Of a stretch of DNA of 41,918 nt, positions 30,637 to 33,302 are shown one piece after another. The notes under the pieces are model-generated. The model was not told where the DNA came from and searched no databases. It saw only the letters and a program-made list of their open reading frames with translations. The position numbers were made by a program, and so were the translations under genes. This DNA comes from an uncultured Clostridia bacterium (GTDB taxonomy: Bacteria; Bacillota; Clostridia; TANB77; CAG-508): positions 1 to 41,918 of the forward strand of contig CANQPV010000003.1 of the NCBI GenBank assembly GCA_947625825.1, read 5' to 3'. How positions within the stretch are numbered: the stretch's first letter is position 1; every line of letters begins with the position of its first letter.

Positions 30637-30724
30637 GCAGATGTGGCGGAACTGGCAGACGCACAGGACTTAAAATCCTGCGGTTGAATAAACCGTGCCG
30701 GTTCGATTCCGGCCATCTGCACCA
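30637..30724 (+). tRNA. tRNA-Leu(UAA), CCA encoded
   Basis: GCAGATG..CATCTGC acceptor, anticodon arm CAGGA-CTTAAAA-TCCTG, GGTTCGATTCC T-loop, long variable arm, ACCA end. Confidence 0.97.
30714..30724 (+). repeat. att-like repeat copy 1 (tRNA 3' end)
   Basis: CATCTGCACCA; ATCTGCACCAGAC extends to 30727 and matches copy 3. Confidence 0.75.
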
Positions 30725-30906: not shown

Positions 30907-31173
30907 TCATGCACTTGATTTGCACTTGATTTTTTTGCTTTGTATAATTACAGTACCAAGCATTTGCTGGCTTTTTTCGAAATCTACAACTGACCTTGTA
31001 CCTGCTTCAATATGATAAATTGATTTTGATGGAATATCAACTCCAAGCATAATAAGTTTATTTGATAGTTCTTGCTTAGATAATTTCTCCATTTGCCTAT
31101 ATTTTCGTAAATTTAAACCAATAATATTTCTTTTCTGCTCTAAAGCACTATTATAGTTTCTAGCATGTGCCAT
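30907..31173 (-). CDS. XRE-like helix-turn-helix regulator
   Basis: IGLNLRKYRQMEKLSKQELSNKLIMLGVDIPSKSIYHIEAGTRSV; AGGAGGAATTTTTATG start region. Confidence 0.8.
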   Translation of the reverse strand: MAHARNYNSALEQKRNIIGLNLRKYRQMEKLSKQELSNKLIMLGVDIPSKSIYHIEAGTRSVVDFEKSQQMLGTVIIQSKKIKCKSSA

Positions 31174-31399: not shown

Positions 31400-31428
31400 T
31401 TGACATTTGCTTATAAATGTTGTATTAT
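31400..31428 (+). promoter_or_regulatory. Strong sigmaA promoter driving a putative ncRNA
   Basis: TTGACA (31400-31405) - 17 nt - TATTAT (31423-31428). Confidence 0.75.
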
Positions 31429-31435
31429 AAGAATA

Positions 31436-31588
31436 ACAAAAAAAATGTAGCATATAATAATTATAGGTTATTCAAGGGTAGAAAGTGGCAGCTACCGTGC
31501 CAGTGATGGTCTGAAAAAAGATGTAGGGTACGCCGTCCTACTGAATAATCAATAAAAAGGGATACTTCACATAGTATCTCTTTTTACT
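31436..31588 (+). ncRNA. Putative stand-alone structured ncRNA
   Basis: Near-consensus promoter, no convincing ORF, 9-bp closing stem (31466-31474/31542-31550), inner helices, 13-bp terminator at 31554-31585. Confidence 0.65.
31554..31585. terminator. Bidirectional terminator shared by ncRNA and nuclease-like ORF
   Basis: AAAAAGGGATACT-TCACAT-AGTATCTCTTTTT, 13-bp stem. Confidence 0.85.
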
Positions 31589-31986
31589 TTCTTTATTCTA
31601 TTTTGATTTATTCCATTTTGCAATTTTACTTTACTTATTGGATATATACTTCTAAAAAATAAATCGCCTTTTGCTTTTAGCCTCACAGCAACTAAAGTTA
31701 ATTCATTAATTTCTTTTATATATTCAATACTACTATGATTTGAATTATAGCCTACATAGTCAGGATTTTGCAAAATATATGGTAATAATTCCATACTTTT
31801 ATTGTATGATTGTTCATCTTTAAAGTCAGGTTTATGTTTATCGCAGTGCTCTATTCTATCATAAGAAATTTTTATATTTCTAGGCTTTTCGTTTAATTGT
31901 AGCAAATTAATTATTTCTTGCTTTAATTCGCCTATTTTTAGTATTTGCTTTTCTTTTTGCAATTTATTTATATCCAATTTATTCAT
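31567..31986 (-). CDS. Stand-alone PBECR-like (phage Barnase-EndoU-ColicinE5/D-RelE) nuclease-fold protein
   Basis: RNIKISYDRIEHCDKH...YILQNPDYVGYNSNHSSIEYIKEINELTLVAVRLKAKGDLFFRSIYPISKVKLQ resembles the family pattern; recalled, not searched. Confidence 0.6.
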   Translation of the reverse strand: MNKLDINKLQKEKQILKIGELKQEIINLLQLNEKPRNIKISYDRIEHCDKHKPDFKDEQSYNKSMELLPYILQNPDYVGYNSNHSSIEYIKEINELTLVAVRLKAKGDLFFRSIYPISKVKLQNGINQNRIKKVKRDTM

Positions 31987-32000
31987 TTTTGCACCTACTT

Positions 32001-32115
32001 CTATTTGATATTTTTCTCAATACTTTTTACAAAATTATCAACTAACCTTTTAAGCCTATCAATAGGGAAATCAAAAAGATTTTTTACTACTTGAAATTCC
32101 TTCTTGTATATTTTA
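32001..32115 (-). pseudogene. C-terminal remnant of an unknown ORF upstream of the PBECR-like gene
   Basis: NKIYKKEFQVVKNLFDFPIDRLKRLVDNFVKSIEKNIK* open only for about 38 codons, preceded by a stop and AT-rich sequence. Confidence 0.5.
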
Positions 32116-32726: not shown

Positions 32727-32969
32727 ATGTCAATAGAAAAACAAGAATTATTTAAATCCATAGAAACTTTACCAGAAGAACTTGCTCTTCAAGTTCTTGA
32801 TTATATAGAATACTTAAAATTTAATTCTATTATTTATAATGCTCCTAAAGATTTAATAATAAAAGATGAAGAAGATCTAAAAAAGAAATTAGAAGAAGGA
32901 ATTGAAAGTACAGAAAAAGGAGAAGTATATTCTCTAGAAGAGGTTTTTGAAGAAGTACAAAAAATATAA
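32727..32969 (+). CDS. RelB/DUF2281-like antitoxin
   Basis: Small acidic protein with LPEELALQVLDYIEYLKF, directly upstream of a RelE-like ORF. Confidence 0.7.
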   Translation: MSIEKQELFKSIETLPEELALQVLDYIEYLKFNSIIYNAPKDLIIKDEEDLKKKLEEGIESTEKGEVYSLEEVFEEVQKI

Positions 32970-32986: not shown

Positions 32987-33302
32987 ATGGAAAAATATAA
33001 GATAAAATTTTCAAAGGAAGCTAGAAGTGATTATTTTGATATTATTAGATAATATTAAATATGATTTAATAGAGCCTAATATTGCTAATAAATATGCAAA
33101 ATTGATAAAAGATGAAATTAAAAAATTAGAATATAACCCACAAAGATTTTCTATTATAGATATTAAAGCAAAGAATTATACTAATATACACAAGTTAATT
33201 ATAAAAAATCATATTGCTTTTTATAGAATAAATGATAATAATAAAATTGTAAATATTGAACGAATTTTATATGGAGCTTCTAATTGGCAGAGTAAAATTT
33301 GA
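32987..33302 (+). pseudogene. RelE/ParE-family toxin disrupted by a +1 frameshift
   Basis: MEKYKIKFSKEARSDYFDIIR then stop; removing one base in AGATAATATT restores RYIKYDLIEPNIANKYAKLIKDEIKKLEYNPQRFSII...; total 316 nt (3n+1). Confidence 0.8.

What the first reader, a model, noticed from the sequence alone, without database searches (positions are those of the whole stretch)
31400..31590. Unassigned structured ncRNA with strong promoter and 13-bp terminator
Seen: TTGACA-17-TATTAT, then about 150 nt without a convincing ORF. GGTTATTCA/TGAATAATC closes a junction holding TGGCA-loop-TGCCA (31486-31490/31498-31502), GTCT/AGAT, and GTAGG/CCTAC (31523-31527/31537-31541). GGTAG (31477-31481) can alternatively pair with CTACC (31492-31496), which sits in the loop of the TGGCA hairpin. 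That gives either a switch or a pseudoknot; the simple H-type version looks sterically strained, with only 1 nt crossing a 5-bp stem. The overall fold is compact and cloverleaf-like. I could not match it to any riboswitch, ribozyme or sRNA family I know.
Basis: partly seen in the sequence, partly recalled or inferred. Interest (0 to 1): 0.72.

Follow-up and report, generated by a model that had tools for sequence, protein, structure and literature searches.

The report
Skipping-rope RNA beside an RNase-like toxin
The structured RNA is a known but unexplained RNA family (skipping-rope), and here and across several bacterial phyla it sits next to a small gene for a predicted RNA-cutting enzyme, so the two look like an RNA antidote and its toxin.

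Summary
The RNA at 31467-31549 (+) is real. It is not unassigned: it matches Rfam RF02924, skipping-rope, over the whole model (61 bits, E 2e-12), a family of unknown function. Its TGGCA/TGCCA hairpin does not: the conserved pseudoknot joins the P2 loop (31485-31489) to the P4 loop (31532-31536).

The new result is the neighbour. ORF 31567-31986 (-) is a PBECR3 nuclease-fold protein (Pfam E 7e-21). Stand-alone PBECR genes, found by protein alone, have this RNA within 90 bp of their 3' end in 44 of 50 testable cases. Large polyvalent PBECR proteins (0/10) and ParE toxins (0/30) do not. The pair occurs on Bacillus, Fusobacterium, Enterococcus and Treponema plasmids and on Streptococcus prophages, where the gene is annotated spbA. 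RNA and protein co-diverge. Broken genes keep intact RNAs, and some phages and satellites carry the RNA alone. The RNA has tRNA junction lengths (2-1-4-0) and a D-loop/T-loop-like kiss.

Best reading: a type III-like toxin-antitoxin pair in which a tRNA-shaped RNA restrains a BECR-fold RNase. Linkage is shown; neutralisation is inferred.

The parts
31400..31428 (+). sigma-70-type promoter of the RNA, TTGACA-17-TATTAT
   Evidence: 11/12; promoter-like elements sit upstream of most copies, mean best score 8.9 against 6.6 for shuffled sequence
31453..31458 (+). second -10-like hexamer TATAAT just before the RNA, recurrent in other copies
   Evidence: sequence; same spacing in many loci
31467..31549 (+). 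skipping-rope RNA (RF02924): P1 31467-31474/31542-31549; P2 31477-31481/31492-31496; P3 31498-31502/31507-31510 plus 31518; P4 31523-31527/31537-31541
   Evidence: cmscan 61.2 bits, E 2e-12, model 1-80 of 80; covariation
31485..31489 (+). pseudoknot strand 1 (P2 loop, GUGGC)
   Evidence: complementary to 31532-31536; loop-loop complementarity covaries over 70 copies
31532..31536 (+). pseudoknot strand 2 (P4 loop, GCCGU)
31553..31586 (+). terminator hairpin, 14-bp stem; overlaps the 3' end of the convergent PBECR gene, so it may serve both transcripts
   Evidence: sequence
31567..31986 (-). 139-aa stand-alone PBECR3-family nuclease-fold protein, proposed toxin; conserved His47, Lys91 and a Ser/Thr near the C-terminal strand
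   Evidence: Pfam PF18812 E 6.9e-21, PF18810 E 2.6e-8; alignments; AlphaFold2 pLDDT 87, pTM 0.82
32034..32062 (-). candidate promoter of the PBECR gene, TTGATA-17-GATAAT
   Evidence: consensus match only

Best explanation
The locus is a two-gene module: a stand-alone PBECR-family RNase-fold protein (31986-31567, -) and, convergent to it, a skipping-rope RNA (31467-31549, +) with its own promoter and terminator. The RNA is the antitoxin. It is made in excess, folds into a tRNA-shaped four-way junction (junctions 2-1-4-0 as in tRNA, with a P2-loop/P4-loop kiss in the place of the D-loop/T-loop kiss), binds the nuclease and blocks it. If the module is lost, or transcription is shut off by a phage, the RNA decays faster than the protein and the RNase is freed to cut cellular RNA, plausibly tRNA. 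This would make the module a plasmid/prophage stabiliser and possibly a phage-defence system; phages and satellites that carry the RNA alone would be carrying an antidote. Shown: RNA identity and covariation, the linkage, co-divergence, decayed genes with retained RNA, RNA-only copies, junction lengths. Inferred: binding, neutralisation, toxicity, tRNA mimicry, target.
For: RNA is RF02924. The neighbour is PBECR3. Both own-genome copies of the RNA pair with the two PBECR3 genes of the genome. Protein-selected tests: 21 of 25 stand-alone genes in the family and 23 of 25 intact genes in GTDB contigs have the RNA within 90 bp; controls are polyvalent PBECR 0/10 and ParE 0/30. 63 of 64 genomes with a stand-alone PBECR3 have the RNA, against 50 of 231 others (Fisher p 1e-31). 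15 plasmid/phage loci from Bacillota, Fusobacteriota, Spirochaetota and Mycoplasmatota have both. RNA and protein distances correlate over 71 pairs: Mantel rho 0.59, null maximum 0.13, and within the window's own subfamily 0.72. In 8 GTDB loci the gene is broken and the RNA full length. An IS-like insertion separates gene and RNA in L282, and the RNA keeps promoter-like sequence. Junctions 2-1-4-0 equal those of the Rfam tRNA model. The PBECR/BECR fold includes tRNA- and rRNA-cleaving toxins (PMC5512222). Homologues are annotated spbA; an spbA locus stabilises pHT1030 (Lereclus & Arantes 1992, title seen).
Against: No experiment. About half of the RNAs outside the family (13 of 28 phylum-wide loci) and 13 of 32 top family loci have no PBECR gene beside them, so the RNA also has a life without the protein. 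L039, L040 and L051 and L230 are PBECR genes without an adjacent RNA. The gene order differs from type III systems (RNA at the gene's 3' side, no repeat array). PDB fold matches to HigB, BrnT, YoeB and CdiA toxins are not significant (best E 0.07). pHT1030's own spbA was not found in the plasmid collection, so the spbA link rests on annotation names. The P3 arm does not look like an anticodon arm (4-nt loop, 3' bulge).
Confidence: 0.66

Rival explanations
1. The RNA is an activating cofactor or guide of the PBECR nuclease, for example in anti-phage immunity, rather than its inhibitor.
For: Same linkage and co-divergence; residence on prophages and satellites.
Against: Intact RNAs persist next to broken genes and in phages without the protein, which fits an antidote better than a cofactor. 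PADLOC has no model for the protein.
Confidence: 0.12
2. The RNA is the substrate or target: a host or phage trans-acting sRNA of independent function that the PBECR enzyme processes or destroys.
For: Many RNAs stand alone, some at chromosomal sites such as 3' of secA (L024-L027).
Against: A target need not be encoded beside its nuclease in 44 of 50 cases with subtype-matched co-divergence.
Confidence: 0.1
3. The RNA is a mobile-element or 3'-end structural element (terminator, recombination or insertion signal) that hitchhikes with small mobile genes.
For: RNAs tend to lie at 3' ends of genes, followed by terminators.
Against: Both gene orientations relative to the RNA are found; own promoters; strong covariation; ParE genes in the same genomes show no association; PBECR subfamilies with 14-19% identity to the window protein share the RNA.
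Confidence: 0.07
4. A trans-acting regulatory sRNA controlling mRNAs, as Rfam's type 'sRNA' suggests, with an incidental PBECR neighbour.
For: Rfam type 'Gene; sRNA'.
Against: 63/64 against 50/231 genome-level co-occurrence, p 1e-31; structure rather than an antisense-like single strand is conserved.
Confidence: 0.05

Closest known systems
skipping-rope RNA, Rfam RF02924
   Same: Full-length match, same four stems, same R-scape-supported pseudoknot family (PMC7779021, Fig. 3 legend).
   Different: The window copy is a plain member. What is added is the PBECR partner and the tRNA-like geometry, neither of which appears in the passages that name the family in the two held papers.
Type III toxin-antitoxin systems (ToxIN, CptIN, TenpIN)
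   Same: Predicted endoribonuclease next to a pseudoknotted structured RNA; found on plasmids and in phages; known type III systems stabilise plasmids and abort phage infection (PMC5086642); phages carry antitoxin mimics (pseudo-ToxI, PMC3475682).
   Different: Toxin is PBECR/BECR fold, not the MazF/Kid-like fold; RNA is a single 70-115-nt four-way junction, not a tandem array of H-type pseudoknots; RNA lies at the 3' side of the gene as its own unit, either strand.
PBECR domains of phage and plasmid polyvalent proteins (Iyer et al. 2017, PMC5512222)
   Same: Same Pfam family, His and Ser/Thr active-site pattern; solo forms in phages were noted there.
   Different: Solo forms here are paired with an RNA; the polyvalent forms tested had none within the fetched flanks (0/10).
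spbA stability locus of B. thuringiensis pHT1030 (Lereclus & Arantes 1992)
   Same: Streptococcus prophage homologues of the window protein are annotated spbA and those with sequence beyond the gene have the RNA right after it.
tRNA (RF00005)
   Same: Four-way junction with linkers 2-1-4-0 and a kiss between first and last hairpin loops.
   Different: No Rfam tRNA score, no 7-nt anticodon loop, no CCA end; kiss of 3-7 base pairs instead of tRNA's two.

Membership tests
skipping-rope RNA RF02924 | covariance-model score over the gathering threshold, full length | tested here: met
   61.2 against 36.7 bits, positions 1-80 of 80
skipping-rope RNA RF02924 | pseudoknot supported by covariation | tested here: met
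   P2-loop/P4-loop complementarity 11.3 native against 8.0 shuffled, maximum 9.1 of 500
Type III toxin-antitoxin system | RNA antitoxin gene beside an endoribonuclease-like toxin gene | tested here: met
   PBECR3 ORF 18 bp from the RNA; general in relatives
Type III toxin-antitoxin system | antitoxin is an array of tandem repeats upstream of the toxin in one operon with a terminator between | tested here: not met
   single RNA, convergent here; elsewhere mostly downstream of the gene with its own promoter; occasional two copies
Type III toxin-antitoxin system | MazF/Kid-like toxin fold | tested here: not met
   Pfam PBECR3/PBECR2; model resembles MuF-C/polyvalent PBECR
Type III toxin-antitoxin system | RNA directly binds and neutralises a toxic RNase | not testable with these tools
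   needs expression and binding assays
PBECR nuclease family (PF18812) | profile score over the cut-off | tested here: met
   74.7 against 30 bits
[quoted passage not shown]
   His47 invariant; RS/RT/KT in the last strand in most aligned proteins
tRNA or tRNA-like structure | cloverleaf linkers 2-1-4-0 with loop-loop kiss | tested here: met
   Rfam consensus structures; kiss; per-copy parsing gives 2-1-4-0 as the commonest of all combinations, 36 of 115, with the P3-P4 linker variable
tRNA or tRNA-like structure | recognised as tRNA by ARAGORN or RF00005; anticodon loop; CCA | tested here: not met
   sequence

The most novel reading that the evidence does not exclude
Skipping-rope RNA is the antitoxin of a new type III-like toxin-antitoxin family: a tRNA-mimicking RNA that occupies the tRNA-binding cleft of a BECR-fold tRNase (PBECR/SpbA), with RNA-only copies in phages and satellites acting as counter-defence.
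Probability: 0.42. Interest if true: 0.9.

Novelty: new variant of a known kind. Interest (0 to 1): 0.8.

Why it matters
Skipping-rope has been an RNA family with no assigned function in the sources available here. The linkage gives it a partner and a directly testable function, proposes a function for stand-alone PBECR nucleases and possibly for the spbA plasmid-stability locus, and would add an RNA antitoxin built like a tRNA and a new toxin fold to type III-like systems.

Tried and rejected
Riboswitch or cis-leader: the RNA ends in its own terminator and no gene follows on its strand nearby. H-type pseudoknot or switch between GGTAG/CTACC and TGGCA/TGCCA: not conserved. GibS sRNA (25 bits, cut-off 115): chance. 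tRNA: not called by ARAGORN or RF00005. Direct blastn of the window RNA against named phages: no match. First alignment A1 mixed strands because genome-search loci are in contig orientation; redone as A2. A2/R1 misregisters P2 and P3 between subtypes, so covariation was re-counted on a wider model-based alignment (fitted to the structure, so it leans towards it) and the pseudoknot tested separately by shuffling loops. A3 had no stretch conserved enough for a genome scan; the subfamily alignment A4 was used. PADLOC and PDB sequence searches gave nothing useful. Searches for pHT1030 or a B. thuringiensis spbA plasmid did not find one. Of the viral contigs pattern hits scanned, 22 of 80 are true RNAs; the rest are treated as chance. 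The 2017 paper that I recall as describing the family (Weinberg et al.) is not held, so whether it noted PBECR neighbours could not be checked.

Full report
OBSERVATION. The window holds TTGACA-17-TATTAT at 31400-31428 and a 14-bp terminator stem at 31553-31586, with the structured stretch between them at 31467-31549 (+). cmscan against Rfam 15 finds skipping-rope RNA RF02924 there, 61.2 bits, E 2e-12, full length (alignment). TGGCA/TGCCA and GTCT/AGAT are not. On 84 distinct copies aligned to a model, 21 of 23 pairs change on both sides and the covariation score is 0.575 against 0.173 in shuffles and at most 0.10 when slid (that alignment was fitted to the structure). The P2 loop and P4 loop are complementary far beyond loops dealt at random (mean helix score 11.3 against 8.0, maximum of 500 shuffles 9.1), with many compensations such as TGTGCCA/TGGCACA, CGTGGC/GCCACG, CGTCCG/CGGACG and CGTACAA/TTGTACG. 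In the window this is GUGGC 31485-31489 with GCCGU 31532-31536. Rfam 14 reports a covariation-supported pseudoknot for this family (PMC7779021). Energy alone is unremarkable for the core (z = -1.44).

THE NEIGHBOUR. The ORF 31986-31567 on the other strand, whose 3' end overlaps the terminator hairpin, is a PBECR3 protein (PF18812 E 6.9e-21; PF18810 E 2.6e-8). The genome has one other skipping-rope RNA and one other PBECR3 gene, and they are neighbours too (56 bp).

IS THE LINKAGE GENERAL? In 295 genomes of the family, RF02924 is in 113 and PF18812 in 69. Counting from those tables, 63 of 64 genomes with a stand-alone PBECR3 have the RNA, against 50 of the 231 others (Fisher p 1e-31). Starting from the protein, 21 of 25 stand-alone genes among the family loci L036-L062 have the RNA within 90 bp, and one more has it at 753 bp. 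An independent, protein-only scan of GTDB contigs gave 25 intact testable genes: 23 have the RNA within 90 bp, one at 753 bp behind an IS-like insertion (L282), one not. Phylum-wide PBECR3 loci behave the same way. Negative controls: ten large polyvalent PBECR proteins and thirty ParE toxin loci in the fetched genomes, no RNA near any. Geometry: the gene's 3' end faces the RNA; 52 pairs have the gene upstream on the same strand, 18 are convergent like the window; gaps 18-87 bp.

NAMED REPLICONS. tblastn with the window protein finds Streptococcus prophage genes annotated spbA and plasmid genes annotated 'PBECR2 nuclease fold'. Rfam then finds skipping-rope beside the gene in B. subtilis pTA1060, B. 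velezensis, F. nucleatum, E. faecalis, a Mycoplasmatota plasmid, S. suis prophages and Brevibacillus and in Treponema, Sporosarcina, Priestia, Macrococcus, F. animalis and S. thermophilus; Azospirillum has a sub-threshold hit (30.9 bits) in convergent position. On the Mycoplasmatota plasmid the RNA lies 5' of the gene on the same strand, the order of classical type III systems. Javan254's record ends at the gene. [quoted passage not shown] That pHT1030's SpbA is the same protein is not shown here.

CO-EVOLUTION AND DECAY. Over 71 non-redundant pairs, protein and RNA distances correlate (rho 0.59; null maximum 0.13 of 2000), also inside subfamilies (0.80, n = 23; 0.72, n = 14, the window's; 0.29, n = 21); two small subfamilies (n = 6 and 5) show no correlation. 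In eight GTDB loci (L293-L300) the gene is broken but the RNA is full length; the reverse, an intact gene with no adjacent RNA, is rare (L039, L040, L051, L230). RNA copies without a PBECR neighbour exist in chromosomes (for example 3' of secA, L024-L027), in phage contigs and in streptococcal satellite phages Javan99 and Javan256. S. himalayensis HTS2, host of Javan256, also hosts the prophage Javan254 that carries the PBECR gene.

SHAPE. The Rfam consensus of skipping-rope reads 8 bp, 2 nt, 5 bp, 1 nt, 5 bp, 4 nt, 5 bp, 0 nt; the Rfam tRNA consensus reads 7 bp, 2, 4 bp, 1, 5 bp, 4, 5 bp, 0. The kiss joins the hairpins that correspond to the D- and T-arms. Free parsing of 115 copies gives 2-1-4-0 most often (36), with the outer linkers firmly 2 and 0 and the P3-side linker variable. 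This resemblance is geometric; the tRNA model itself does not score the RNA.

PROTEIN. AlphaFold2 with 17 sequences gives a confident model (pLDDT 87, pTM 0.82): helices and an antiparallel sheet. Viral matches are MuF-C and polyvalent PBECR proteins (E to 8e-6). The best PDB matches are HigB2, BrnT, YoeB and CdiA-type toxins but none is significant. His47 is invariant, Lys91 nearly so. Iyer et al. predicted RNase activity for PBECR domains and noted solo forms in phages (PMC5512222).

MECHANISM. The pattern (nuclease-fold gene with an adjacent, independently transcribed, co-diverging, pseudoknotted RNA; plasmid and prophage residence; gene decay with RNA retention; RNA-only copies in phages) is that of an RNA antitoxin and RNase toxin. 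It works like a type III system but fails two features that define the known families: no repeat array upstream in an operon, and not a MazF-like fold (PMC5086642). It is therefore filed as type III-like, a new variant. That the RNA binds the tRNA site of the enzyme is a hypothesis from shape and fold. Phage-borne pseudo-ToxI is the precedent for RNA-only copies (PMC3475682).

NOVELTY. The RNA family is known; the passages that name it in the two held papers do not link it to a gene. The founding paper could not be read, so priority of the association is unverified.

Noticed in passing
window 32727-32969 (+) and 33027-33302 (+): A DUF2281-like protein followed by a ParE-type toxin (PF05016 E 1.9e-7): a probable type II toxin-antitoxin pair 0.7 kb beyond the PBECR gene.
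   Followed up: partly
window 30637-30724 (+) and 30907-31173 (-): tRNA-Leu(TAA) followed by a small HTH protein divergent from the RNA promoter; possibly the edge of an integrated element at the tRNA.
   Followed up: no
window 31453-31458 and upstream of most other copies: A second -10-like hexamer (TATAAT/TACAAT) recurs 5-10 nt before the RNA, downstream of the main promoter; tandem promoters or an operator.
   Followed up: partly
L249 2580-2635 (pTA1060) and L250 2380-2435: Bacillus-plasmid RNA (RF01691), another Rfam plasmid RNA, lies within 100 bp of the convergent skipping-rope RNA behind the PBECR gene on two Bacillus plasmids.
   Followed up: no
L177, L178, L179, L124, L119: Two skipping-rope RNAs of different subtypes side by side, downstream of a PBECR gene or its remnant in L177, L178, L179 and L124.
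   Followed up: partly
L282 2370-3119; similar in L290: An IS-like transposase remnant inserted just after the PBECR gene; in L282 it lies between gene and RNA and the RNA keeps promoter-like sequence.
   Followed up: partly
L024-L027: Skipping-rope RNA without PBECR at the 3' end of secA in three genera of the family; looks like an old chromosomal site.
   Followed up: no
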